From IMG/VR virus record IMGVR_UViG_3300048592_000259, positions 1 through 62,961 of that record: a stretch of DNA of 62,961 nt; one strand, written 5' to 3'. The stretch comes from a virus. How positions within the stretch are numbered: the stretch's first letter is position 1; the number at the start of each line of letters is the position of its first letter. Shown one piece after another: positions 26,669 to 60,700 of this stretch. The translations under genes and the position numbers were made by a program. The notes below the pieces were generated by a model. That model was given only the letters and a program-made list of their open reading frames with translations, ran no database searches and was not told the DNA's origin.

Positions 26669-27122
26669 GGGTCTGGAAGGTGCGCACCACGTCGTTCACG
26701 GCCTTGGTCAGGGCGTGCACGATTTCAAGCTCGCGGAACCGCTCGGTCGGGCCGGGGCGCTTCATCGGGACCAGCGAGTAGACCGGCGGGACGTGCCGCG
26801 GGATCTTGACCGCCCGGGCGATCACCACGATGCCGTCGTCGGTCCGGTAGTGCGTCAGGGCCGGGTCGTCCAGGGCCGGCGCCGCGCGCCGGATGACGCT
26901 CGCGCACGCCTCCAGGAAGGGCTCGGCGATCGCGTTGAAGCCCTGATGGTCCCGCGTCTGGTTGATGGCGCCCACGCCGAACATCAGGTCGTTGGTCCGG
27001 AACCGCTGGGCCGGCGACGCGCAGGTCGGTGAAGCGGCCACGCCGACCGCGTACCAGGCGGCGCATTCGATGAAGGCGCCCCGGAGGCGGAATCGGGCGA
27101 AGGCTCCCGCGTCGAGCGTCAC
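26640..27122 (-). CDS. Conserved-type hypothetical phage protein upstream of terminase, 160 aa
   Basis: Starts with GTG 27122, which shares bases with the upstream TGA (GTGA). It holds two Cys near residues 19 and 30, a mixed alpha/beta body (TNDLMFGVGAINQTRDHQGF; TDDGIVVIARAVKIPRHVPP) and a charged C-terminus. No known motif. It is translationally coupled at both ends and lies before the terminase genes, so a packaging-related or regulatory role is possible. Confidence 0.75.
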   Translation of the reverse strand: MTLDAGAFARFRLRGAFIECAAWYAVGVAASPTCASPAQRFRTNDLMFGVGAINQTRDHQGFNAIAEPFLEACASVIRRAAPALDDPALTHYRTDDGIVVIARAVKIPRHVPPVYSLVPMKRPGPTERFRELEIVHALTKAVNDVVRTFQTRAERQAQGL

Positions 27123-27514
27123 CGCTGCCCCTTCGGGGGCACCCAACGGCAGTCGGGCAGCGACAGTTCGCACGACGAGCAGCGGATGAGCCCGGACCGG
27201 TGGAGGCGGAAGTCCTTGCCGTTGCAGCGCGGGCACCCGGCGATGTCGACCTCGATCATGCCGGGGCCGACGACCTTGGCGTTGCGCATCTCGCGCTGCC
27301 GCACCTGGGCCTGGGCCGAGACGTGCGCCACCGCGGTCCGCAGCTGCCGCATGCTGAACGGGCGCACGTTGTCGATCGGGGCGGTGGGCTTCGCGGCGCC
27401 CATCGGCTCCGGGACCCCATCCGAATGGGGTTGGAATGCCTCTGGAATGGGATTCGGAAGGGATACGGCGGACGGCGGCGCGTCGCTGGTGCGGTCGCCG
27501 GGCTGGTCGGTCAT
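27119..27514 (-). CDS. Zinc-ribbon protein, 131 aa
   Basis: The C-terminal third carries CPRCNGKDFRLHRSGLIRCS plus one more Cys (C-x2-C-x16-C-x2-C), a zinc ribbon. The N-terminal part is low-complexity and Pro-rich. ATG 27514 is preceded by AGGGGG at a good distance; the frame is open for 45 more codons upstream, but that part looks non-coding. It may bind nucleic acid or act as a small transcription-related factor. The DNA of its linker contains the ATGGGG/CCCCAT motifs also found in the O-like gene. Confidence 0.75.
   Translation of the reverse strand: MTDQPGDRTSDAPPSAVSLPNPIPEAFQPHSDGVPEPMGAAKPTAPIDNVRPFSMRQLRTAVAHVSAQAQVRQREMRNAKVVGPGMIEVDIAGCPRCNGKDFRLHRSGLIRCSSCELSLPDCRWVPPKGQR
27414..27458. 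repeat. Copy of the origin-type ATGGGG/CCCCAT motif cluster
   Basis: ACCCCATCCGAATGGGGT at 27414-27431 is an inverted repeat with seven-base arms. GGAATGGGATTCGGA at 27444-27458 is identical over 15 bases to 40833-40847 inside the O-like initiator gene. It lies inside the linker part of the zinc-ribbon gene. Confidence 0.7.
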
Positions 27515-27671: not shown

Positions 27672-27926
27672 CTATTCGTCGGACGGGATGCCGGCGATGT
27701 CGGCGAACGTGGCGAGCGCCAGCTGGTCGATGCGGTTCCCCAGCCACGCCGCGAGTTCCGCCCGAGCCTTCGCGCGGATTTCGAGATAGCTCGCGCCGAC
27801 CAGCGGCCAGGTCACGTCGGCCGCGACGACGACCTCGGGCACCAGCGGCGCTGGCAGCGGGATCTTCGCGAGCGCGGGCGCGGCGAAGACGGCGGCGAGG
27901 CTCCCGAGGAGCCCGCGGCGGTTCAT
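27672..27926 (-). CDS. Small protein with signal-peptide-like start and a capsid-like segment, 84 aa
   Basis: Begins NRRGLLGSLAAVFAAPALAK, which has twin arginines, a hydrophobic core and an A-x-A site, like a short Tat- or Sec-type signal. The rest is a helical domain ending AAWLGNRIDQLALATFADIA. That segment resembles AYWLANRVDQLVLLTMSGIS in the phage's own major capsid protein. ATG 27926 overlaps the stop of the upstream gene (ATGA). Function unknown. It may be an exported or membrane-associated peptide, or a small head-associated protein in which the signal likeness is accidental. Confidence 0.7.
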   Translation of the reverse strand: MNRRGLLGSLAAVFAAPALAKIPLPAPLVPEVVVAADVTWPLVGASYLEIRAKARAELAAWLGNRIDQLALATFADIAGIPSDE

Positions 27927-28171
27927 GGCGCGAGCCCGCACACGCGGGCGTATCGGCGCAGCAGGGAGCGCGAGCGCGGGACGCGCATGAACGTCATCAC
28001 GATCCGGTTGATGCCGTAGTCGCAGGCGGCGCACACGCCCAGGAAGCGCCGGCCGTTCGCGCAGACCTGCCACTGGTGGACCGACGGGGCGCCGCATCGG
28101 CAGCACGGCACGCGCGAGATCCCGCGCGTCGTGTACGGCTTCACCCGGCCGGCGTAGCGGACCCTCCCCAT
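27923..28171 (-). CDS. Zinc-finger-type conserved phage protein, first gene of the late leftward operon, 82 aa
   Basis: Contains VPCCRCGAPSVHQWQVCANG followed by RFLGVCAACDYGINRIVMTF, two C-x2-C pairs that form a probable zinc site. From memory this is a recurrent phage protein of Burkholderia- and Ralstonia-type phages, usually near terminase. ATG 28171 was chosen; a TTG at 28201 would extend the frame. A TACAAT box ends only seven bases upstream of the ATG, so the mRNA may be leaderless. It is the first gene of the morphogenesis transcript and could be a regulator. Confidence 0.8.
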   Translation of the reverse strand: MGRVRYAGRVKPYTTRGISRVPCCRCGAPSVHQWQVCANGRRFLGVCAACDYGINRIVMTFMRVPRSRSLLRRYARVCGLAP

Positions 28172-28184
28172 GCTCGGAATTGTA
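28171..28184 (-). promoter_or_regulatory. Candidate leftward promoter -10 box for the morphogenesis operon
   Basis: Minus strand reads TACAAT-TCCGAGC-ATG. The same arrangement, TACGAT-CCGAGC-ATG, precedes the Cro-like gene at 41537. I find no good -35 box at 16-18 bases, which would fit an activator-dependent late promoter. Confidence 0.5.
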
Positions 28185-28233
28185 TGCCAATTGGGGTGCA
28201 ATTGACCCCCAAGCGGGGGCTCGCGCGAGGGTC

Positions 28234-28273
28234 TATCCAGACCCTATCCAGACCCTATTTAGACCCTAAATAG
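28234..28273. repeat. Three and a half 11-bp iterons
   Basis: Direct repeats TATCCAGACCC (28234-28244), TATCCAGACCC (28245-28255), TATTTAGACCC (28256-28266) and a partial TAAATAG (28267-28273), with no spacing. One 11-bp unit is about one helical turn, so a protein could bind all units on the same face. Lies in the non-coding divergent region (28202-28441). May be a replication- or transcription-control site. Confidence 0.8.
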
Positions 28274-28302
28274 GCACCAACCGGTGAGTCCCGCGCCCGT
28301 GA

Positions 28303-28318
28303 TGTTCCACATGAAACA
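28303..28318. promoter_or_regulatory. parS-like ParB-binding site
   Basis: TGTTCCACATGAAACA matches the bacterial chromosomal parS consensus TGTTNCACGTGAAACA at 14 of the 15 fixed positions (CACATG instead of CACGTG). It lies in the non-coding divergent region. I find no ParA or ParB gene in the genome, so any use would rely on host ParB. It could also be an inverted repeat for another protein. Confidence 0.6.
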
Positions 28319-28363
28319 TCGCGCCGCGGCCGGTGTTGCACGCGCGCAACTGGCCGACGAACG

Positions 28364-28383
28364 GTATCAACCTAGATTGATAC
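28364..28383. promoter_or_regulatory. Operator palindrome O1
   Basis: GTATCAACCTAGATTGATAC is an 18-of-20 palindrome around CTAG. Its right half contains the TTGATA -35 box of the rightward promoter at 28377. Sites of the same design lie at 41567, 41582 and 46522. Confidence 0.8.
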
Positions 28384-28405
28384 TGCGCAGGATATGCGCT
28401 ACGAT
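28377..28405 (+). promoter_or_regulatory. Rightward sigma70-type promoter of the accessory operon
   Basis: TTGATA (28377-28382), 17-base spacer, TACGAT (28400-28405). The first gene of the rightward operon begins 36 bases downstream. The -35 box overlaps operator O1, so the bound regulator would exclude RNA polymerase. Confidence 0.75.
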
Positions 28406-28441
28406 GGGGTTGTGCCCTCGGTTCCCTCCCTCGGAGTCCCC

Positions 28442-28567
28442 ATGATCCCCCATCCCCGCCCCTACGCCTGCGCCTGCGGTCACCACGCCTTCTGGATCAA
28501 CGGCAAGGGCTGGGTGTGCGTCTGCGGGTCGCCCCGCCCCTTCTACCTCGAAAGGAAAGCAGCGTGA
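28442..28567 (+). CDS. Tiny Cys-rich (zinc-knuckle-like) peptide, first gene of the accessory operon, 41 aa
   Basis: Open frame PHPRPYACACGHHAFWINGK then GWVCVCGSPRPFYLERKAA, after a GGAG sequence. It has four Cys in two C-x-C pairs and two His, consistent with a single zinc-bound fold. It is the first open frame after the promoter at 28377, and its stop overlaps the next start (GTGA). No family recognised. Confidence 0.65.
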   Translation: MIPHPRPYACACGHHAFWINGKGWVCVCGSPRPFYLERKAA

Positions 28568-28929
28568 CCATGCCCCTCGGAAGCACCGGCAGCCTCACCA
28601 ACTACCTGATGTCCGGCACCAAGGGCCAGCCCGTGCCCGCGGTCGGGATGGGCGCCACCCTCCTGGGCTGGACCGACCGGCACCCCGCGACCATCGTGGC
28701 CGTCGGCCCGAACGCGCGCTGGGTCGACGCCCAGGACGACGACTACAAGCGGATCGACAAGAACGGGATGAGCGAGTCGCAGGAGTACGAGTTCTCCCCG
28801 AACCCGAAGGCGCCGATCGTCCGCTACTCGCTGCGCAAGGACGGCGGCTACGTCCGGGTCGGCGACTCCATGAGCGGCGCGCGCCTGCGGATCGGCGACC
28901 GCGACTGCTACTACGACTTCTCGTTCTGA
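28564..28929 (+). CDS. Hypothetical phage protein, 121 aa
   Basis: Starts at GTG 28564 (overlap with the upstream TGA, AAAGGA sequence seven bases away) or at ATG 28570 (MPLGSTGSLTNYLMSGTKGQ). The remainder holds beta-strand-like segments (ATLLGWTDRHPATIVAVGP; YEFSPNPKAPIVRYSLRKDG). No enzyme motif. Conserved-looking early or accessory protein of unknown role. Confidence 0.8.
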   Translation: MTMPLGSTGSLTNYLMSGTKGQPVPAVGMGATLLGWTDRHPATIVAVGPNARWVDAQDDDYKRIDKNGMSESQEYEFSPNPKAPIVRYSLRKDGGYVRVGDSMSGARLRIGDRDCYYDFSF

Positions 28930-40286: not shown

Positions 40287-41309
40287 TCACCTCCCCTCTG
40301 CGGTCTTGATCCGCTCCACGAAATGCTCTTGTGACTCGCCAGGTCGCGGTGTGATTCCGAGTTCGCGTCCGCGCTTCGCCGCACCCTCTGGCGTCTTCCA
40401 CCAGGCGGGCCCGCCGCTGTCGAGAACCGGCGGTCCCTTCCCGGTCATCCATTCGGTGTGCAACTTCTCGCAGTCGGCGAGCAGCATGCCGAGCGTGTGC
40501 CCCTTCTGGACGTAGAAGCGTTCGTCGCTCGTGACGTAGTGCGCCGCCACGTCCGGCGCCGCAGCGCCCAGGCGCTTCACGAGTTGCGCGATCTGCGCGT
40601 TCACCGTCGCGTTGCGCACGGGATCGGCGCCGTACCGCTTCCGGTAGGCCGCGCTGTAGCGTTCCCATACCTCGACCGTGATCGGCACCCTGCCGGGCGC
40701 CTCGGGCGGGGGTGGGGCCTTTCGTTTCTGACCTGTCGGGCCTGTCGACGACCGCGAAGCGGCGTCGGCAGTCCGGGGTTTTACCGGTACCGGTACCTGT
40801 ACCTGTGTATCGGATGGGGTTCGGACCCCATCGGAATGGGATTCGGATGGGGTCCGTTTTTCGACCGTTCGTCGGCTGTCAAACCGGGCGATCAGGGCGT
40901 CCCGGCGCGCGGCCGGAAGGTCCCCTCCGTATTCGCGGAGCGCGTCCGCGGCGGCGCCCAGGACGGTCGCCTCATCGGGCAAGGACTCGAACGACCCGAA
41001 GATGTGGGTCGCGTACTTGGCACTGATCTTGCCGATGTGCTTGAGGGACTTGTGGATAACTACGAAGCCAGTCCCATTGCAATGGGATGCGAACCCCATT
41101 CGAGTGAGGTCCGAAAGGGATTCGGATGCCTGTTCCTGGGTGAGCCCGAGGTCGGCGACCAGGTAGGCAATCGGCAGGTGGAAGGCGCCCGCCGCGTTCC
41201 CGTGCCGGCAGGTCACCAGGTACAGGGCGACGAGCTTGGACAGGGGCGCGAGCCGGGCGATCGACGGCGAGGTCCAGAAACCGCTGGAGACGGTGGCGAA
41301 CTTCCTCAA
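40287..41309 (-). CDS. Lambda O-like replication initiator, 340 aa
   Basis: The N-terminal 110 residues look like a replisome-organiser winged helix (SSGFWTSPSIARLAPLSKLV; LVADLGLTQEQASESLSDLT; FVVIHKSLKHIGKISAKYAT). A low-complexity linker with DNA repeats follows, then a C-terminal helical domain (VWERYSAAYRKRYGADPVRN). TTG 41309 is the only start after an in-frame TAG and has GGGAGGGG just upstream. As in lambda, the protein likely binds iterons inside its own gene and recruits host helicase. No P- or DnaC-like loader is recognisable next to it. Confidence 0.83.
   Translation of the reverse strand: MRKFATVSSGFWTSPSIARLAPLSKLVALYLVTCRHGNAAGAFHLPIAYLVADLGLTQEQASESLSDLTRMGFASHCNGTGFVVIHKSLKHIGKISAKYATHIFGSFESLPDEATVLGAAADALREYGGDLPAARRDALIARFDSRRTVEKRTPSESHSDGVRTPSDTQVQVPVPVKPRTADAASRSSTGPTGQKRKAPPPPEAPGRVPITVEVWERYSAAYRKRYGADPVRNATVNAQIAQLVKRLGAAAPDVAAHYVTSDERFYVQKGHTLGMLLADCEKLHTEWMTGKGPPVLDSGGPAWWKTPEGAAKRGRELGITPRPGESQEHFVERIKTAEGR
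40814..41128. other. Predicted replication origin region inside the O-like gene
   Basis: Repeated elements: ATGGGGTTCGGACCCCAT (40814-40831, seven-base arms), GGAATGGGATTCGGA (40833-40847), a DnaA-box match TGTGGATAA (41051-41059, complement TTATCCACA), palindrome TCCCATTGCAATGGGA (41072-41087), and GGGATTCGGATG (41117-41128). The first cluster falls around codon 155 of the initiator, the same relative place as ori in lambda O. Origin function is inference. Confidence 0.6.
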
Positions 41310-41324
41310 GATCCCCTCCCGGGG

Positions 41325-41537
41325 CTACTTGCCGCGTTTCTTGGGGCGGGCCCGAGCCGGCGTCGCGAGGCGCGGCCAGAGATAGAGGACCTGGTAGACG
41401 CGCCCCTCGGGAATCGTCTCGCCCCACGACGACACGGCCTGCGCGCTCACGCCAAGACGCGCGGCGAACTTGCGCTTGGACATCTTGAGTCGACTGAGGC
41501 AGTCGGCCAGGGAGAGTGTTGGGGTTGGTTTGTCCAT
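41325..41537 (-). CDS. Cro-like repressor, 70 aa
   Basis: SLADCLSRLKMSKRKFAARL and GVSAQAVSSWGETIPEGRVY form a Cro/CI helix-turn-helix in a protein of Cro size. It is the first leftward gene next to a divergent promoter pair with two overlapping operators, so it very likely binds them. The -10 box of its promoter ends six bases before the ATG, so the mRNA may begin at the start codon. No separate CI-type repressor with a cleavable C-terminal domain was found. Confidence 0.85.
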   Translation of the reverse strand: MDKPTPTLSLADCLSRLKMSKRKFAARLGVSAQAVSSWGETIPEGRVYQVLYLWPRLATPARARPKKRGK

Positions 41538-41573: not shown

Positions 41574-41601
41574 CCTAGCTTGTATCAAAGTGAGTTGACA
41601 T
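41567..41601. promoter_or_regulatory. Operators O2 and O3, overlapping
   Basis: O2 is GTGTCAACCTAGCTTGTATC (41567-41586). O3 is GTATCAAAGTGAGTTGACAT (41582-41601). They share GTATC. O2 overlaps the leftward -35 box and O3 overlaps the rightward -35 box, as in a bistable or autoregulated divergent switch. Confidence 0.78.
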
Positions 41602-46521: not shown

Positions 46522-46563
46522 GTATCAACCGGGGTTGACACGTCGGCCCCGGTTCGTCACCAT
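46522..46563 (+). promoter_or_regulatory. Operator O4 with a weak internal rightward promoter
   Basis: GTATCAACCGGGGTTGACAC (46522-46541) has the same design as O1-O3. Its right half holds TTGACA (46535-46540), followed after 17 bases by a weak -10 CACCAT (46558-46563). It would allow regulated transcription of the downstream genes from 46590. Confidence 0.65.
46527..46554 (+). other. Hairpin after ssb
   Basis: AACCGGGG (46527-46534) pairs with CCCCGGTT (46547-46554): eight perfect pairs, 12-base loop. No U-run follows. It may reduce read-through from the ssb block, or simply belong to the operator. Confidence 0.6.
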
Positions 46564-46589: not shown

Positions 46590-47027
46590 ATGCTGCCCTA
46601 CGAAGGCGCTACCAGCGGCGAAAAAGCCGCCGCTGACATGCAGAAGATTCTGGCGAAGTTCGGCTGCACCCGGTTCGGGACGATGATGGACTACGCCGAC
46701 GGCTTCCTTCTGGTCCAGTTCGGCTATCGCGGGCGCGACGTGAGCCTCAAGGCGAGCGTGCACGGCTACGCCGCGGCGTGGCTGAAGGAGCATCCGTACA
46801 GCTATCGCTCGCGCGTCAGCAAGGCGGACCACGAGCAGAAGGCGAAGCAGGTCGCGGCGATCGCGGTCTACTCCATCCTGCGCGACTGGATCAAAGGCCA
46901 GATCACCGCGATCGAAACCGGCGTTCTGTCGTTCGAGGGCGCGTTCTTCGGCCAGATCATGCTTCCCAACGGCCGCACGGTCCTCGAAGAATGCGCGGCG
47001 ACCAACCTGCTTCCGGCGCCGAAGTGA
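46590..47027 (+). CDS. Hypothetical phage protein, 145 aa
   Basis: Alpha/beta protein with a surface-helix pattern (SGEKAAADMQKILAKFGCTR; LVQFGYRGRDVSLKASVHGY; RVSKADHEQKAKQVAAIAVY) and a C-terminal part EGAFFGQIMLPNGRTVLEE. It has a GGGGAGG sequence. Conserved-looking phage protein beside DUF1643. Function unknown. Confidence 0.8.
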   Translation: MLPYEGATSGEKAAADMQKILAKFGCTRFGTMMDYADGFLLVQFGYRGRDVSLKASVHGYAAAWLKEHPYSYRSRVSKADHEQKAKQVAAIAVYSILRDWIKGQITAIETGVLSFEGAFFGQIMLPNGRTVLEECAATNLLPAPK

Positions 47028-51745: not shown

Positions 51746-54700
51746 CTACTGCGCCAGGCGTTCGCGCAGGTCGTTGCGCATGCCGGCGGGCGCCGCCTTC
51801 ACGAAGCGTTCGCTGCGCGTGGTCTGCATTTCCTTCACGCGGCGCGCGATGTCGCTCGGGCGAATCTGGATCTTCGCTTCGGGGTTCTTCTCGTTCCAGT
51901 CGCGCAGCTGCGCGAGCGCGTCGTTCACCTTCGCCTTGTCCTTCTCGAAGATGCCGGTCGCCCAGCGGTCGGCCACTTCGCCCTGCACCGCGCGCACCAG
52001 GTTCGCGGTCTGCTGGCCTTCGCTGATGATGCGCGACTCGGCGGCCACCTTCGACGGGTTGAACCCCGTGGCGCGGGCGATCGCGTCGGTCGTGTCGGTC
52101 GCGATGACGCGCCGGCCGCGGCTGTCGAGCGCGTAGCCGCCCTGGATCATGTCGACGGCCTTCGCCGCGTCCTGGAGCGCCTTCGGCGCGAACTGGCGCG
52201 CCGCGGCGCCGAACTCGCCCGACTGCGCGCTCGTGACGGCATCCGCGACGCTGCGCGCGAGCCCGCCGGCCGGCCCCAGCACGTCCACGATGTCGCGGCC
52301 CTTGTCGACGTTCGACTTCTTCGCGAGGCCCGTGCCGGGGATCAGGTTGCCCATCCCCATGCGGCCCTGCACGTCGAGCGGGAAGCCGGGCATCGTCGAC
52401 GCGCCGTGCAGCACGAACGCGCCCAGGTCCTTCCCGAGGGTCGAGACGATGAACGCGCGCTTCTGCTCCTTCGTGTTCCAGTTGTACCCGAGGGACTGCG
52501 CGATCGTGTCGATCAGGTCGTCCAGGTCGTCCGAGAACGGGAGCCCGGAGATCCCGGACGCCAGCATCAGCAGGCCCAGCGCGTACGCGCGCTCGCGCGG
52601 GGGCAGGCGCTTCAGGAACTCCAGGTAGGCGATCGAGTACTGCTTGAACGTCATCACCGTCGCGCCGATCGGGCCGCGCGCCCAATTCGGCCGGTTCGCC
52701 TTGTTGTAGACGCCCTGCGTCTCCGCGATCGCGTTGACCGCGAAGTCGTAGGCGCTCTTGGCGCCGGCGTCGGCAAGCTGCTCGGCGTTCCAGTCCTTCG
52801 CCATCCCGAAGGCGGCGAGGAAGGTGGACCGGCGGTTGAACTGCTCGGCGACGGCGAACATCGACCCCCACACCTTGAGGCCCTTCCGGAGGTAGATGTT
52901 CGACCCGAGCCCGCGGATCGACTCGGCGTACAGCTGGTGGATTTCGTGCGGCGAGACGGTGCCCTCGCGCTCGGCGCGCGCGAGCGCCGCGGCCGTGGCG
53001 GGATCCGTCGGCCGCGTCACCGCCTCCTTCATGCCTCGCGCGAGCGCGCCCGCGGCCTTGGTCGCGCCGAACTGCGACAGGTAGGGCAGCGTCATCATGA
53101 ACGGCTGGGTCGTGTTCACGACCGCCGACGCGACCGACCCGCCGAGGTACTGGACGAACAGGAAGCCGCGCAGCGACGCCGCTTCCTCCTTCGGGTCCTG
53201 GAGGTAGGTGACGAGCTTGACCGCCTCGTCCTTCACGTCGCCCATGCGCTTCGGGATCGCCTCGACCGCATCGTTCATGTCGGCGTTGTTGAGGTTCCCC
53301 GACGCCGCGCGCGCGTTGCTCGTGATGAAGGCCGACAGCACGCGCTGGGCGTCCTGGTCGAAGCCGGCGATGCCCTGGCGTTGCAGCAGGCGCTTGAGCG
53401 CGCTGCGGTTGTTCAGGGCCATGCGGATGAACTCGTGGAACGCCTCGCGCTGGTCGGCGCCGGTCGCCTTCGCGAACAACTCCAGCGTGTCCGGCGTCAT
53501 CCCGCGGAACATCTTGTGGGCTTCCTTCGACAGCGTGCCCTGGGTGACTTGGGCGTTCGGGAACTCGGCGCGCAGCGACCGCGCCATTGCGTTCGCGTCC
53601 GCCTGGCGCTCGAACATGCCGAAGTAGACGCGGTTGTCGCCCTGCACCGCGTCGACGGTGTACTGGCCGAAGCGCATCAGCGGCGCGTAGCCCTCGCGGA
53701 TCAACTCGCGCACGCGGCCGTACCGGTTCAGGATCTCGCCGGCCGTCGCGGAAAGCTCCGCGCGCGCCGCCTCGGTCGTCGCGGCCTGCGACAGGCGGAT
53801 CAACTCGCCAGAGAGGGCCTGGGACGCGCCGTGGTGCGTCAGGAGCATGGCCTGGTCGATGAACGCCTTGTCGACCTTCCCGCGCGCCAGGCGAGCCATT
53901 TCCGACTGCGAGAGCGTTTCCAGCGACCGTTCGATCGCCGCGCGCGACTCCTGGTAGAGGCCGACCTGGCGCGGCGTCAGGTGGAAGCGATCGCGCAACT
54001 CGGCTTCGGTGTACTCGCGCTCGTCGATCAGCGTGCCGTGGAACAGCGGCACCGACACGGCGCGCACGTCCTTCGACGACGGGCCGATCTTGAGGACGCC
54101 CGAGAGCCCTTCGAGCTTCGGCAGGAGGTCCTTCGCCCGGTCGGCCGCGTCGTTCGCGATGCGCGACACGTCGTTGACGTACCGCTGCGCCTGGTCGTAG
54201 ACCCGCTTGAACTCGGGCACGACGGTCGCCTTGTGGAACTGCGTGCCGACGGTCTTGTGCCAGGGGTTGAAGACGCGCTGGGTCGTCAGGTGGTCCTGGA
54301 TGCGATCGGTGATCCTCGACACGGTGCCGCGGGACACCCCGAACGGCAGGCCGGGCTCGGCGACGATCCATTGCGGGTCAGCCTCGCCGACTTCCGGCTG
54401 GGCGGCATCGCCGGCCGTGTAGCGGCGCAGCGGTTCGGCCGCGACCGGCTTGGCCTCGTCGTCCGCTTCCTCCCCGCCCTCGGGCGCCGCGGCGGCGCCG
54501 TTGTCCTCCACCCCGATCCCGAGGGCCTTGTCGAGTTCGCGCTGGCGCTCCAGTAGCTCCTGGACCTTCGCGGCCTGCGGGTAGGGCTTCTCCGACTCGG
54601 CGCGCGCGACGGCCGCGTTGGCCGCGTTCTTCTCGGCCACGGCCGTCATCCGGGCCGCTTCCTCCGTCACGTCGCGCACCAGCCCTTCGAGGCGCTGGAT

Positions 54701-57700
54701 GTTGCCGTCGGCCGACTCGCCGGCCGTGGTCGCGTAGCTGTTCGCGCCCTGGAGCGCGAGGCGCACGGTCACATGGTCGCCGTAGCTCGCCTTCTCCTTC
54801 GTCACGGCGACCGGGAAGCCGCCCAGGTGCCCGACGACGATCGGCGGCTGGTTCATGCCGACTTCGCTGACGGCGCGCGCGAAGGCGCCCGCCGCCTCCA
54901 CGCGGTCGGCGTAGCGGCGATCGCCCACGGTCATCAGGAAGGCGTCCCCGCGCGTCGACACCACGCGGCCCGCGTCGAGCTTCGCGCGCTCGGCGTAGGC
55001 ACGCTGGTTCGTCGCGTACTGTTCGAGCTTCGTTGCCTCCAGCCGGAGCCGGTAGGCGTTCTCGTTGTGGCGGGCCTGGGACGACGTGAGGCGCGACAAC
55101 TCGCCGTCGACGTTGGCCTTTTCGAGGATGAGCGGGTTCCCCGAGGCGAACGCCTTCAACTCGGCGTAGGTCAGGGCGCGGTCGCTGACTTCCTCGATTT
55201 CGCGCACCGACGGATCCGCGCGCATCACCTGGTCGATGAAGGCCGACTTGCGCTCGACCGCCGACCACATGAAGGCGTCGAAGGACCCCTCGGTGATGTA
55301 GTGCCAGAGTTCGACTTCCTCGTTCTCGTTGCCCTGCCGCACCATGCGGCCGTTGCGCTGTTCAACGTCGGCGGGACGCCACGGCACGTCCAGATGGTGC
55401 AGGGCCTTCAGGAGGCGCTGGACGTTCGTGCCGGCGCCCATCTTGTCGGTCGAACCCAGCAGGATGCGCACGCGGCCGGCGCGCACGTCCTCGAACAGCC
55501 GATCCTTCTTGAGGTCGGTGTCCGCGTCCTGGATGAAGGCGACTTCGTTCGCCGGCACGCCCGCCTTCACGAGCTTGTCGCGGATGTCCTGGTAGACGCT
55601 GAACTTGCCCTTGTGGGGCGTCGAGAGGTCCGAGAAGATCAACTGCGACGACTTCGCCGCGCGCGTCTCGGTCCAGATCCGCAGGACGTTGGCGACCGCC
55701 TTGTTCACCTTCGACTCGGGGTCGTCCGCCGCCTTCGGGTCGACCAGGCGCATGTCGAGCGCGGCCTTGCGACCCTCGCTCGTGATCTTGAGCATGTTGT
55801 CCTGCCGCGGGTCGACCGTGCCGGTCTTGATCGCCTCGGCGCGCGCCACGAGATCCGCGACGAACGCTTCCATTTCGGCGGTCTTCGGCGAGGTCATCGA
55901 CTGCGGCTTGCCGCCGCGCAGCTTCGGCACCGGCAGCTTGAGCATGTCCGCCGTCTTCACGTCGGCGAACTCCCCGAACATCTGCGCGAGCTCGCCCACG
56001 TTGACGAACTTCGCGAACCGGGTCTTCGGAGCGTACCCGCCGCCGTCGGCGCGCATCTCGTACTGCGTGACCGCCTCGCCGAACTGAGCGGCCCAATTGT
56101 CGAATTGGTCGAGCCCCGCGGCCTGGAGGGACTTCATGCCCAGGTACCGCTGCATCGTGAACATTTCCGTCACGCTGTTCGCGATCGGGGTGCCGGTCAT
56201 GAAGACCACGGCGCCGCGGCCGTTCGCCTGGTCGTTCAACCACGCCGTCTTCAACAGCATGTCGGTCGACCGCTGCGAGTCCGCCGTGCCGATACCCGGC
56301 ATGCGGTCCATTTTCGTCTCGAAGCCGAGGTTCTTGAAGTAGTGGGCTTCGTCGACGAACAGGCGATCGACGCCGAGTTCCTCGAAGCGCACCACGTCGT
56401 CCTTCGCCGCCATCGCCAGTTGCCGGTCGAGGCGCGCCTTCAGGTCCTTCTTGCGCTTCTCCAGGCGCTTCTGGAGACGGCTGTTCTTCCCGCCGCCCTG
56501 GGTCTGAGCCTGTTCGAGGATGGCTTCCTCGACCTGCCGGATGCGCTCCTGGATGAAGTTGGCGACGTACTCGTCCGACATCGCGAGCTTCTGGAACGAC
56601 GAGTGCGTGATGACGATGCCGTCCCAATTCCCGGTCGCGATGCGCGAGGCGAGCTCCTTCCGCTTTTCGGCGACCAGATCCTCCTTGCGCGCCAGCAGCA
56701 GGTTCGCGTTCGGGTACAGCTGGAGCCATTCCCGCGAGTACTGTTCCAGCATGTGATTCGGAACGACGTGCATCGGCTTGCGCGCCGCGCCGATCCGCTT
56801 CAACTCCATGCTGCCGGCGATCGCCGTGAAGGTCTTGCCGGCGCCGACCGCGTGCGCGAGCAGGGTGTTCCCGCCCGTGACGATCCGCCACGCACCGTCC
56901 TTCACGTTCTGGCGCAGCTTGATGAGCGGGTTCGTGCCCGGCAGCGTCAGGTGCGACCCGTCGTACTTCCGCAGCTGGGTCGTGTTGAACTCGTCGTTGT
57001 AGAGGCGAGCGAGCGCGTCGCGCACGTCGTCGGTGCGCATCCACCACGCCTCGAACTCGGCGCGGATCGCGTCGATCTTCTCGGCCGCGGCCAGCGTCGC
57101 GGCGGTGTTGACCGTCGTGGTGCCGTCCGAATGGTGAATCAGGATCTTCGGCTTCTGCTGGTTCAGGGCCGACTCGAACAGCGACAGCGCGTGCAGTTCG
57201 GGCGTGCCCCATACCCCGCGCATCTGCGGCGTGTCCGTGTTCACCGAGCGCGGCGTGACGCGCCAGTCCGATGTGGTGGGCGAGAAGTGGATGTCGAAGG
57301 CGTTGCGCTGCGGGGTGCCGAACGTCTCCTGCGCGAAGCGCGCCAGCACGTCGGTCGGAATCCACCGCTGGCCCAGGCGGGCGCGGATGGCCGACGGCAC
57401 CAGGTCTTGCGGGATGACGGCGCGCAGCGCCTTGGCGTTCGCCTCGAAGGCCGGATCGGTCAGGGCGGCCGCCTCCGCTTCCCGGAGCTTCGCGCGCACG
57501 TTGCCCGACAGGTACGCCTCGGACTGCTGCCACGAACGTTCCACCGGGTCGAGGTAGATGCGCCCGTCGAGCCCGCCGATCAACTCGGCCTCGGAGAAGC
57601 CCGTCAGCCGGCTCATGTGCGCCAGGTCGACGCGCCCGAGCTCGTTCAGGGAGGCGGTCAGCGCGTCGATCGCGTTGTCGGCCGACGTGATCGGCACCGA

Positions 57701-60700
57701 CCGCTGGACCGTGCGCTGGGTGAACACGTCGGCCTTCGCCGCCGTCTTCTTCTCGGGGTTCCACTTCTCCAGGGCGAGCAGGAGCGGCGCGTCCGAGTCT
57801 TCGATGATGGTCGCGCGGTTCGCCTTCTCGTTCAGGTAGCCGTGCTTCTTGACGAAGGCGTCGTAGGCGTCGTTCAGGGCCGCGGCGGTGGCGTCGAAGC
57901 GCGCCTGGTCGTCCGTCTCGACCTGGGTGCGCAGGTGCGCGCGCGCGGCGTCGCGAATGGCGATCGCCGCCGTCACCTTCGCCGCGTCCAGGTGGCTCAT
58001 GGGCTGGAGCAGCCCGCGGCCCTTCTGGAAGACCTTGCCGTTCTTCACGACCAGCGCGCCCGGCTTGATGTCGTCCGGCGCCGGGATCGGCTCGTCGAAC
58101 ACCTTCGAGGTCGCGATCGGCTTCACCCCGTCGGCGGGGAGCTTGGCGATCGCGTCGCGGATGCTCGCCGGCAGGTCGCGGCCGTCCGACTTGAGCGCTG
58201 CGTCGCCGCGGCCGTACATCGTGCCCTCGCGCGTCATCCGCCCCATCATCATTTCGGGATGGGCGACGAAGTACTCGTTGACGCGCAGGTCGCCGTCCGC
58301 CGATTTGATCGTGTCCAGGTTCAGCCACTTCGCCTCGCCGGGCGCGGGATCCGCCTCGCGCTCGCGCTTGCGCAGGAAGATGATGTCCGTCGTGACTTCG
58401 GTGTTCGCGTTCGCCTTGAAGGCGTCGTTCGGCAGGCGGATCGCGCCCAGGAATTCGCCCTTGCGCGCGATCAGCGCGCGGGCCGCGCTGTTCATCTTGT
58501 CCATCGTGCCGTCGCTCGTGACGAACGCGACGACGCCGCCAGGGCGCACGCGGTCGAGCGCCTTGGCGAAGAAGTAGTCGTGGATGAACAGCTTGTGCTT
58601 GTTGTACTTCGGGTCGCTGACGGTGTAGTCGCCGAACGGGACGTTCGAGATTGCCACGTCGAAGAAGCCGTCCGGGAACTGCGCCTGCTCGAAGCCCTGC
58701 ACCCGCACGTCGGCGGTCTGGTACAGCTGCTTGGAGATCCGGCCGGACAGGCTGTCGAGTTCCACCCCGGCGAGCGTCGACGCGCTGCGCGCGGCGTCCG
58801 GCATCAGGCCGAAGAAGTGGCCGACGCCCATCGCGGGCTCCAGGACGCGACCGCCCTTGAAGCCCATGTGCGCGAGCGCGTCCCACATCGACGTGATGAT
58901 CTGCGGCGCGGTGTAGTGGGCGTTCGGCGTCGACCCGCGCGCGAGTTCGTATTCCTCCTTCGTCAGGAGGTCGAATAGCTCGCGGCGCTCCTTCGCCCAC
59001 TCGGGGGACTGGCCGCGTTCCATCGACATCGGGCCGTAGCCCGACCGGTTCGTCTCCTTCAGCCAGCCGTCGAAGTAGTCGTAGTGGCCGAGGTAGAAGG
59101 CGTTCTTCATGCCGCCCCACCCGACGTAGCGCGAAAGCGTCTCCTGCTCGGCCGGCGTCGCGGCGCGGCCCTCGGATTCGAGCGTCTTCAGGACGCGGAT
59201 CGCTTCGAGGTTGCCGGCGTACTTCTGCTTCAACCCGCCGGTCCCGATCGTCTCGGGCCGCGTGATGCGGAAATTTACGCCCGTGCGCGTGGGCGGCTTG
59301 TACGCGATGGGGCGTCGTACCCGTTCGCGTCCGCCTCCCTTGTCTCCGCGTCCTTGGTCAGCAGCAGGTCCGGAATCACCGCCGCTTCCGCCTCGACGAG
59401 AGCGGTCCCCGGATCCGCCCCCTTCGCGATCAGGCTGTCCATCATCGCGTCGACCGCGTTGAACGTTTCCTCGGCCTTCGCCGCCACCGTCGCGTTGAGC
59501 GTCCCGTCCGCCTGCATCTGCTCGAACGCTTCCGGGTCCGCCTCCTTGAGGCTTCGCCGCGCCATCGTTTCGTACTTCTTGGGTGCCACCTTGGCCTCCT
59601 TGCGAGAACAGGTCGTCGAACAGGTCCGCGATCGCGCCGGGCGACTCCTTCTTCGCGCGCGCGACGACGGCCTTACGCTCCGGAACCGGGTCGCCGAACA
59701 GGTCGAGCGTTTCGCGCGCGTGGTATTCGCGCGCCTCTTTGCGACCACCGAGCCGGAAGTCGTGGCGCGGGAAGATGCCGGCGGCCTGAATCGAACCCGT
59801 GATCGGGTAGGAATTCGGGTCCGCCGTCACGGGCGCATCGACGATGGCGTCGCGCAGGAATCCGTTGGACACGGCCACCGAGGCTACGCGCCCGAGATTG
59901 TTCGGAACGCCGACCGCGAAGATGCCGTTGCCGCTTCCGGACGCCCGCGCGAGGCGGGACAGCATCGCGCCGGTCCGCAGGTTCTCCTTGAATCGTTCGT
60001 GCGGGATTTCTGCGAGCAGGGTGATCTTGTTGTCGGCCCCCACGCCGATGAGCGCGATCATGCCCGGCTTCTGGATCTTCTTGCCGATCCGCGCTACGTC
60101 GTATTCGTTTTCGACGCGATCGTAGCCGAGATCCTTCGCCGGGGCGGGCGCGTTCGCCGCGAGGGTGCGGACTTCCGCCACGAACCTTTTCCGCTTCCGG
60201 TCAATCCGGATCAGCCCGAACTTGTTCGTGTCGAGGATGACGTGCCCGCCGTATAGCTTCGCGAGCGCCTTATTTCCGAGAATGTAGTCGGTCAGGTTGA
60301 CATCGGAGCTCGATGCCTCGGGGCGCCCGGACGGGTGGTTGTGCATCAGGTAGAACTTGTCCGCGTCGAGCGACTTCGCGATGTACTCCAGGCGCAGCAG
60401 GAACATCTTCGGCGAGCCGACGAACGCCGCGGTTACTGACGGCAGGCGCGAGGTCACCGCTTCCTCGTGGATGACCTTACCGCCCTTGGTGAAGACGTAG
60501 CGCATCGTCTCGTAGCGCGGGTCGCGGTAGACCTGTGCGACCGCCGCCAGGTCGGCGTAGCTCGTGACCGGCTTCCCGAGCAGCGTCGATTCCCCGTCGC
60601 GGATCATGTCGAGATTGATCGCCGCGGCGAGGACCGACACGCGGCCGGCCTGGGTGAGTTCGCGCATGGCGCCGTCGCGCGCGGCCTTCGCCTTCGCGTT

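What the first reader, a model, noticed from the sequence alone, without database searches (positions are those of the whole stretch)
28303..28318. A bacterial parS-like site in a phage without ParA/ParB
TGTTCCACATGAAACA matches the parS consensus TGTTNCACGTGAAACA at 14 of 15 fixed positions, in the non-coding divergent control region beside iterons and an operator. By my own arithmetic with uniform base frequencies, a site this good is expected about 0.005 times in a genome of this size. The phage has no visible integrase or partition genes. Host ParB could load on this site to segregate a plasmid-like prophage, to silence or activate the nearby promoters, or to act as a ParB sink.
Basis: partly seen in the sequence, partly recalled or inferred. 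Interest (0 to 1): 0.78.

Follow-up and report, generated by a model that had tools for sequence, protein, structure and literature searches.

The report
Phage with host centromere-like DNA site
A phage in which no chromosome-partition genes were found carries one near-copy of the DNA site by which bacteria recognise and segregate their own chromosomes; the site is unlikely to be chance and may let the phage borrow the host's ParB protein, but no binding has been shown and the relatives examined lack it.

Summary
TGTTCCACATGAAACA lies at 28303-28318 in a non-coding region between divergent operons, matching TGTTNCACGTGAAACA at 14 of 15 fixed positions. About 0.0005-0.0014 such sites are expected in this 63-kb phage. 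Searches found no ParB, ParA, tyrosine integrase or serine recombinase. The dyad is a singleton.

For a host-ParB reading: the exact 16-mer sits in a genuine parS array beside parB in a genome of the order of Comamonas; it is in at least 120 viral contigs against 13 for a scramble, 31 of 121 sites intergenic against 0 of 13; exact host-type parS occurs in four KPP25-group Pseudomonas phages and in 41 viral contigs without a ParB above cut-off.

Against: the mismatch breaks the CACGTG core; 0 of 50 portal relatives have a site within one mismatch; one copy; in GC-rich viral contigs the 16-mer is rarely intergenic (1 of 10); contigs with it are not richer in canonical parS than controls; host unknown; binding untested.

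I do not file it as a proven parS. Best reading: a parS-like site recruiting host ParB, slightly under even odds. The wider pattern of phages with host-type parS is the better lead.

The parts
28303..28318 (+). parS-like 16-mer TGTTCCACATGAAACA; left arm TGTTCCAC intact, right arm (read on the other strand) TGTTTCAT
   Evidence: same 16-mer in a chromosomal parS array, L515:5584
28301..28320 (.). extended 20-bp dyad GATGTTCCACATGAAACATC
   Evidence: its 18-bp form is the only match in the window at up to 3 mismatches
28334..28351 (+). second dyad TGTTGCACGCGCGCAACT, whose first 8 bases fit the parS arm TGTTNCAC; spacing of the arms 2 bp wider than in parS
28364..28383 (.). operator dyad GTATCAACCTAGATTGATAC overlapping the -35 box; recurs in the genome
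28377..28405 (+). sigma-70-type promoter-like site TTGATA-17-TACGAT of the rightward operon
   Evidence: 1 found, 0.1 expected from shuffles; a consensus match only
28233..28268 (+). three direct 14-nt repeats CTATCCAGACCCTA, 11 bp apart
28191..28212 (.). imperfect palindrome near the start of the leftward operon
27923..28171 (-). first gene of the leftward operon (no Pfam family; relative in L206 upstream of terminase and portal)
28564..28929 (+). early gene of the rightward operon; phrog_33370, relatives in Burkholderia phage CSP3, a Variovorax phage and others
41325..41483 (-). Cro-like regulator gene (P22_Cro, above cut-off), near a weaker copy of the operator
41582..41601 (.). operator copy, 3 mismatches
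46522..46541 (.). operator copy, upstream of the gene at 46590
40287..41309 (-). replication gene, DnaD-like helicase loader (phrog_1701); weak O-like match; no Pfam family

Best explanation
The dyad at 28301-28320 is a host-type parS-like site that recruits the host's chromosomal ParB to the phage genome. Inferred steps: after injection and circularisation host ParB nucleates at the intact arm and, more weakly, at the second arm; it then slides into the flanking DNA. This marks the phage genome as cargo for the host's ParA, helping positioning and inheritance of a non-integrated genome, and it would also dampen the promoter that begins about 58 bp away. Shown here: the site, its improbability, its presence in a genuine bacterial parS array, no ParA or ParB found in the phage, and other viral contigs, without a detected ParB, that carry exact host-type parS. 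Not shown: binding, loading, segregation, or an effect on transcription. Between the two outcomes I put segregation or positioning slightly ahead of promoter control.
For: Chance expectation 0.00045-0.0014. The exact 16-mer lies at L515:5584 among TGTTCCACGTGGAACA (5380), TGTTCCACGTGAAACA (5428, 5480) and TGTTTCACGTGAAACA (7414), beside mnmG/gidA, rsmG/gidB, parB (TIGR00180, above cut-off) and a ParA-family gene (matches below curated cut-offs). In 150 genomes of that order CACATG variants occur at 13 places in 11 genomes, the backwards control in none, and 3 of the 13 lie within 1.3 kb of a canonical site (about 5e-6 by chance under a rough estimate). 26 sites in 12 of 14 genomes that hold portal relatives; six of these genomes have TGTTCCACGTGAAACA, one base from the phage site. 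Exact 16-mer in at least 120 viral contigs (scan stopped at its limit) against 13 for a scrambled 16-mer of equal composition over the whole collection; 31 of 121 sites intergenic against 0 of 13. Canonical parS in at least 120 viral contigs (scan stopped) against 23 for a control palindrome; 57 of 147 sites intergenic against 3 of 23. Of 41 of those 120 contigs, chosen for length, none has ParB above cut-off and 4 have a sub-threshold match; KPP25 and AP1 have none. KPP25, R18, CRPAP1904 and YMC17/07/R4900a carry TGTTCCACGTGGAACA, identical to P. aeruginosa parS2/parS3 (PMC4368675 Table 1, passage); ParB was searched in KPP25 only. The dyad is a singleton, unlike the phage's own operator.
Against: The mismatch is in the CACGTG core, which PMC4368675 reports as important; PMC5098823 reports that sites with two mismatches are not bound in vivo in P. 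aeruginosa, and this site has two against that species' sequence; PMC10419367's introduction cites other work that did see such binding. 0 of 26 sites in the 14 candidate-host genomes have a CACATG core. Not conserved in 50 portal relatives. One copy only. Host unknown. The intergenic excess in viral contigs lies mostly in contigs below 60% GC: above it, 2 of 19 canonical sites and 1 of 10 of the exact 16-mer are intergenic, and this phage is 69% GC. Contigs chosen for an intergenic exact 16-mer have a canonical site in 1 of 30 records, control-pattern contigs in 2 of 36, so the two do not go together. Of the 121 viral sites of the exact 16-mer 41 share one coding frame, so part of its excess is a protein motif. 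The four KPP25-group sites lie in near-identical DNA and count as one event; in R18 a 120-bp annotated reading frame covers the site.
Confidence: 0.45

Rival explanations
1. The dyad is an operator for a DNA-binding regulator that is not ParB (phage-encoded or host). With the dyads centred near 28342 and 28373 it forms an array spaced 31-32 bp, three helical turns, upstream of the rightward promoter; the likeness to parS is coincidental or shallow.
For: Three dyads with centres at about 28310.5, 28342.5 and 28373.5 (from coordinates); a promoter-like site overlapping the third; the phage has a Cro-like and another HTH regulator. Among 30 loci with an intergenic exact 16-mer, L411 and L473 also hold TGTTTCACATGAAACA and L457 holds TGTTTCATATGAAACA, centres that ParB would not be expected to favour.
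Against: The dyad does not recur in the genome, unlike the operator at 28364/46522. The same 16-mer belongs to a real parS array. The three dyads differ in sequence, so one protein does not explain them.
Confidence: 0.31
2. Chance likeness, or a decaying former parS with no present function.
For: Imperfect palindromes of 18-20 bp are common in this GC-rich genome: 259 of 18 bp and 100 of 20 bp with at most two mismatched pairs. No conservation in relatives. The exact 20-mer also occurs inside a long reading frame of a genome of the order of Comamonas (L516) and in three viral loci (L011, L423, L452) that are not among the intergenic ones.
Against: Expected 0.00045-0.0014 per window, and about 9e-6 within the 271-bp control region; 18-bp form expected 0.02 times at up to 3 mismatches and found with none; position in the control region; a second arm 31 bp away (chance about 0.008 by a simple estimate).
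Confidence: 0.2
3. A ParB sink: the site titrates host ParB or delays host chromosome segregation during infection rather than serving the phage genome's own inheritance. This overlaps the best explanation, since it too needs host ParB to bind.
For: Works with one site per genome if phage copy number is high; needs no phage par genes. Exact parS in a group with a member described as lytic is hard to explain by prophage segregation.
Against: A site with a broken core is a poor sink; no test of host segregation.
Confidence: 0.1

Closest known systems
Chromosomal parS of bacteria, Pseudomonas aeruginosa and Burkholderiales types
   Same: 16-bp dyad, left arm identical, the exact 16-mer present in one parS array of the order of Comamonas
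   Different: core CACATG instead of CACGTG; single; on a phage; no parAB found
SGI1 'stolen' parS sites that use the IncC plasmid's ParABS (PMC10954446; outline, abstract and passages read)
   Same: a mobile element with parS mimics that borrows another replicon's ParB
   Different: SGI1 has two copies, binding and stabilisation were shown there, and the ParB is plasmid-borne; here the supposed ParB is the chromosome's and nothing is shown
Phage parABS of mycobacteriophage RedRock and kin (PMC7157519; passages read)
   Same: centromere-like sites on a phage without integrase
   Different: RedRock encodes ParA and ParB, and its parS are arrays of 8-bp direct repeats; neither gene was found in the window
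Half-parS sites of P. aeruginosa (PMC10419367; outline, abstract and passages read)
   Same: GTTCCAC, present here at 28304-28310, is a preferred single arm for ParB in that species
   Different: a few hundred to a thousand scattered in a chromosome; the terms 'phage' and 'prophage' do not occur in that paper's main text
KPP25-group Pseudomonas phages (Kochitakasuvirus)
   Same: distant kin by portal (about 36%), no ParB found in KPP25, a parS site
   Different: perfect P. aeruginosa parS, located between the gene after the portal and the capsid gene, not in the divergent control region

Membership tests
chromosomal parS | match to TGTTNCACGTGAAACA within one mismatch | tested here: met
   14 of 15 fixed positions
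chromosomal parS | intact CACGTG core (reported important for P. aeruginosa ParB, PMC4368675, passage) | tested here: not met
   core is CACATG; 0 of 26 sites in 14 candidate-host genomes have that core, though the same 16-mer is in a genuine array in G308
chromosomal parS | sequence used within parS arrays next to par genes | tested here: met
   L515:5584, in an array whose neighbours are parB (TIGR00180, 194 bits against a cut-off of 58), a ParA-family gene (below curated cut-offs), rsmG and mnmG
chromosomal parS | bound by ParB and starting point of spreading | not testable with these tools
   needs EMSA, biolayer interferometry or ChIP-seq
phage-encoded parABS | own parA and parB genes | tested here: not met
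   no TIGR00180, PF02195 or PF13614 match in the window
stolen-parS element (SGI1-like) | parS mimic without own par genes | tested here: met
stolen-parS element (SGI1-like) | the borrowed ParB's own site is the same sequence | tested here: inconclusive
   host unknown; betaproteobacterial hosts of related prophages have TGTTTCACGTGAAACA or TGTTCCACGTGAAACA
stolen-parS element (SGI1-like) | site kept in related elements | tested here: not met
   0 of 50 portal relatives within one mismatch; relatives of the control region itself were not found
stolen-parS element (SGI1-like) | binding and stabilisation of the element | not testable with these tools
   needs plasmid stability and binding assays

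The most novel reading that the evidence does not exclude
Many phages without any ParB carry host-type parS sites between their genes and recruit the host's chromosomal ParB, as a widespread stolen-centromere strategy of which this window is one, slightly degenerate, instance.
Probability: 0.4. Interest if true: 0.85.

Novelty: new variant of a known kind. Interest (0 to 1): 0.55.

Why it matters
If host ParB loads on phage DNA, then a core chromosome-segregation protein (and through it ParA and possibly SMC) is a phage host factor; I found no paper reporting this in eight term searches of open-licence papers, whose listings were capped. It would give a testable reason why some phages without integrase or partition genes might persist, and a simple sequence rule for finding them. 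The KPP25-group site, identical to P. aeruginosa parS2/parS3, makes the question directly testable in a laboratory strain.

Tried and rejected
Conservation in kin: a terminase query gave one locus and a single-protein portal query two distant ones; a portal alignment gave 80 loci, the best of 442. The site is not in them. The control region could be compared only loosely: L206 has a relative of the gene at 27923, and no match within two mismatches.

Lessievirus hypothesis (Bcep22-like): only the early gene at 28564 and a distant portal likeness (about 22%) support kinship; CSP3 has no site. JC1, a Bcep22-like phage, encodes an integrase (PMC9144972, passages).

An RNA hairpin at the site: fold energy of 28280-28360 is not unusual (z -0.94). 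Terminator: none found in 27900-28700.

A preference of the viral sites for divergent regions, which would have favoured a regulatory role, was not seen: 6 of 57 parS sites and 4 of 31 sites of the exact 16-mer, close to background.

Coding artefact: part of the viral matches to the exact 16-mer (41 of 121) share one reading frame, and one of two exact parS sites in control-selected records is coding (L498). The argument therefore rests on intergenic sites. With the small controls the intergenic contrasts are modest: p = 0.018 for parS and 0.039 for the exact 16-mer. For the looser pattern TGTTNCACATGAAACA 51 of 121 sites are intergenic against a background of 0.107, but no matched control was run.

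The exact 20-mer in G270 (L516) lies inside a long reading frame and is not evidence.

In 36 records brought in by the control patterns 2 hold an exact TGTTNCACGTGNAACA (13 records, 23), and in 30 records with an intergenic exact 16-mer 1 does; too few for a rate, and no support for co-occurrence. In one search the backwards control pattern, at up to two mismatches, matched 3 of 9 records, so only the exact matches there count.

Full report
What the window is. The window is a virus record of 62,961 bases whose first and last 127 bases are identical, so probably a complete genome. GC is about 69%. It has a P22-type portal (PF16510), a large-terminase gene whose phage relatives (230 records) are all under 60% identical, a leftward structural arm, a rightward early arm from about 28.4 kb, an endolysin-like gene, a DnaD-like replication gene at 40287-41309 with a weak O-like match (no Pfam family), a P22-Cro-like gene at 41325-41483 and one 3717-codon reading frame at 51746-62899. 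Closest by portal among named phages are Acidovorax phage AP1 (52.5%), an unassigned podovirus genome MW202615 (42%) and the KPP25 group of Pseudomonas phages (about 36%). Portal relatives, taken to be prophages, were found at 21 loci of bacterial genomes, among them Comamonas, Paracidovorax, Curvibacter, Ottowia, Azoarcus, Solimonas and Pseudomonas. The host of this phage is not known.

The observation. TGTTCCACATGAAACA is at 28303-28318. It differs from TGTTNCACGTGAAACA at one position, the G of the central CG. The dyad extends to 20 bp and matches the 20-bp duplex used for the Caulobacter ParB-parS crystal (GATGTTTCACGTGAAACATC, PMC7383237, passage) at 18 of 20 positions. Expected number of sites with at most one mismatch in the window is 0.00045-0.0014. 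It is the only match in the window to ATGTTYCAYRTGRAACAT at up to three mismatches, 0.02 expected.

The surroundings. Between the leftward gene (start 28171) and the rightward promoter-like site (28377-28405) lie an imperfect palindrome (28191-28212), three 14-nt direct repeats 11 bp apart (28233-28268), the parS-like dyad, a second dyad (28334-28351) that begins with the parS arm TGTTGCAC, and an operator dyad (28364-28383). The operator recurs at 46522 and, with 3 mismatches, at 41582 about 100 bp upstream of the Cro-like gene (the pattern was drawn from the first two copies). The parS-like dyad does not recur. That separates it from the phage's own operator. The arms TGTTNCAC number five in the whole window and two of them are 31 bp apart here; such nearness has a chance of about 0.008 by a simple estimate. 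The spacing of the second dyad's arms is 2 bp wider than in parS, so it is not itself a parS.

No partition genes found. ParB (TIGR00180, PF02195), the ParA-type AAA_31 (PF13614), tyrosine integrase (PF00589) and serine recombinase (PF00239) gave no match in the window. Other routes of integration or partition were not searched.

Conservation. In whole records of 50 of the 80 portal relatives, one has a match with two mismatches and none has a better one. In 24 of the other 30, no exact TGTTNCACGTGNAACA. In the stretches held of all 80, one match with two mismatches was found, and six control patterns gave 0 to 3 each. Of nine named records, four have an exact TGTTNCACGTGNAACA, all in the KPP25 group; the other five (phiA008, CSP3, AP1, MW202615, vir555) have none at up to two mismatches; the backwards control pattern, at up to two mismatches, matched three of the nine, so only the exact matches carry weight. 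The closest relatives by portal (57-60%) are short fragments (L132, L133), so absence from relatives is weaker evidence than it looks, but it is against conservation as far as it goes.

The host side. In 14 genomes that hold portal relatives, TGTTNCACRTGNAACA occurs at 26 places in 12 genomes, every one with a CACGTG core, one to three per genome and on one contig; the backwards control occurs nowhere. The betaproteobacterial ones have TGTTTCACGTGAAACA and, in six genomes, TGTTCCACGTGAAACA, one base from the phage site; the Pseudomonas-type ones and Solimonas have TGTTCCACGTGGAACA. In 150 genomes of the order of Comamonas, TGTTYCACATGRAACA occurs at 13 places in 11 genomes, the backwards control in none. 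Three of the 13 lie within 1.3 kb of a canonical site (L501, L502, L506). In one genome, G308, the exact phage 16-mer is the fourth of five sites: TGTTCCACGTGGAACA, TGTTCCACGTGAAACA twice, TGTTCCACATGAAACA, TGTTTCACGTGAAACA, over 2 kb, with mnmG, rsmG, a ParA-family gene (matches below curated cut-offs), parB and mnmE around them. So this very 16-mer is part of a natural centromere array. Two AT-rich genomes (G325, G239) have two TGTTTCACATGAAACA sites about 4 kb apart with no canonical site within the 16 kb read. The exact 20-mer in G270 lies in a long reading frame and I set it aside.

The phage side. Canonical TGTTYCACGTGRAACA is in at least 120 viral contigs (the scan stopped at its limit), and a control palindrome of equal composition in 23 of the whole collection. 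57 of 147 sites are intergenic against a background of 0.092 of bases; the control has 3 of 23 against 0.069 (a cruder rule gave 63 of 147 and 3 of 23). 17 of the 120 loci have more than one site, some in tandem (L271, L255). Nine of ten proteins next to such sites, from eight contigs, match phage protein families, among them major head, tail and portal proteins, so at least some are phage DNA and not host chromosome. Of 41 of the 120 contigs, chosen for length, none has a ParB above the cut-off and four have a sub-threshold match. The phage's exact 16-mer is in at least 120 contigs against 13 for a scramble of equal composition, with 31 of 121 sites intergenic against 0 of 13. Of the remaining sites 41 share one reading frame, which points to a protein motif, so I rely on the intergenic ones. 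Two results go against the reading. The intergenic excess is mostly in contigs below 60% GC: above it, 2 of 19 canonical sites and 1 of 10 of the exact 16-mer are intergenic, and this phage is 69% GC. And records with an intergenic exact 16-mer hold a canonical site in 1 of 30 cases, no more than control records (2 of 36). L063 has TGTTTCATGTGGAACA and TGTTCCACGTGAAACA 187 bp apart, the first between divergent reading frames as in the window, the second inside one; L479 has two 49 bp apart. The sites do not favour divergent regions.

KPP25 group. All four genomes examined (KPP25, R18, CRPAP1904, YMC17/07/R4900a) have TGTTCCACGTGGAACA directly after the gene that follows the portal gene, before a terminator-like stem (read from the sequence) and the capsid gene. 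In R18 an annotated 120-bp reading frame covers it; in the other three records no gene is annotated there. It is identical to parS2 and parS3 of P. aeruginosa PAO1 (PMC4368675, passages), and PMC5098823 (passages) gives TGTTCCACGTGGAACM as that species' parS. The DNA around the site is nearly identical in the four, so this is one event. These are isolated phages, so host contamination is not a likely cause. ParB was searched in KPP25 only, with no match.

What binds? For ParB: the above. Against: the core mismatch. PMC4368675 suggests that an intact CACGTG core is important, and PMC5098823 that sites with two mismatches are not bound in vivo; against the Pseudomonas sequence this site has two. 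PMC10419367 (outline, abstract, passages) cites work that did see binding to such sites, shows that P. aeruginosa ParB binds single arms GTTCCAC and GTTTCAC, one of which is intact here, and says that this ability differs between species. The rival that the three dyads at 31-32 bp spacing form an operator array for other proteins is real and I give it 0.31.

Mechanism and function. If ParB loads, a single site next to the early promoter could serve inheritance of a circular, non-integrated genome through host ParA, or silencing of the promoter by spreading, or titration. That ParB represses promoters next to strong parS sites is the title claim of PMC5521831 (seen in a search listing only). 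The phage has a Cro-like gene and a replication gene but no detected integrase, which fits, without showing, a plasmid-like state. CRPAP1904 of the KPP25 group is called lytic in an abstract seen in a search listing (PMC13340246), which suggests that segregation of a prophage is not the only use.

Known systems. The nearest precedent in function is SGI1, which carries copies of its helper plasmid's parS and uses that plasmid's ParABS (PMC10954446). Phages with their own parABS are known (PMC7157519). I found no paper describing host-type parS on ParB-less phages in searches; that library holds only open-licence PubMed Central papers, the listings were capped, and Livny et al. 2007, the survey of parS distribution, was seen only as a reference.

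Verdict. Observation confirmed. The site is parS-like by sequence and occurs as such in a real array, but the core test is not met and nothing shows binding, so I do not file it as a proven parS. Host-ParB recruitment is my best explanation at 0.45. The more interesting lead is the class of phages, without a detected ParB, that carry intergenic host-type parS, above all the KPP25 group.

Noticed in passing
L131:16588-16603 (KPP25) and L213, L214, L215: Four isolated Pseudomonas phages carry a perfect P. aeruginosa parS (TGTTCCACGTGGAACA) between the gene after the portal and the capsid gene.
   Followed up: partly
L271:6863-6894, L255:5525-5566, L317:3643-3814, L272, L325: Viral contigs with tandem or clustered canonical parS sites; of these, the records of L271, L255 and L317 were searched and gave no ParB match.
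   Followed up: partly
L513:5808 and 9783; L514:6498 and 10232: Two AT-rich genomes drawn from the order of Comamonas have pairs of TGTTTCACATGAAACA about 4 kb apart and no canonical parS within the 16 kb read; perhaps a lineage whose parS has a CACATG core.
   Followed up: no
27414-27431, 40825-40842, 41093-41110: A second recurring dyad, ACCCCATNCGNATGGGGT; two copies lie inside the replication gene, as origin repeats do in lambda (recalled), and one upstream of the gene at 27119-27403.
   Followed up: partly
51746-62899: One leftward reading frame of 3717 codons, about 18% of the genome; not annotated here.
   Followed up: no
L498:2543 and viral matches: parS-like 16-mers also arise inside genes in a preferred frame (reading I-V-P-R-G-T in L498), a source of false parS calls in phages.
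   Followed up: partly
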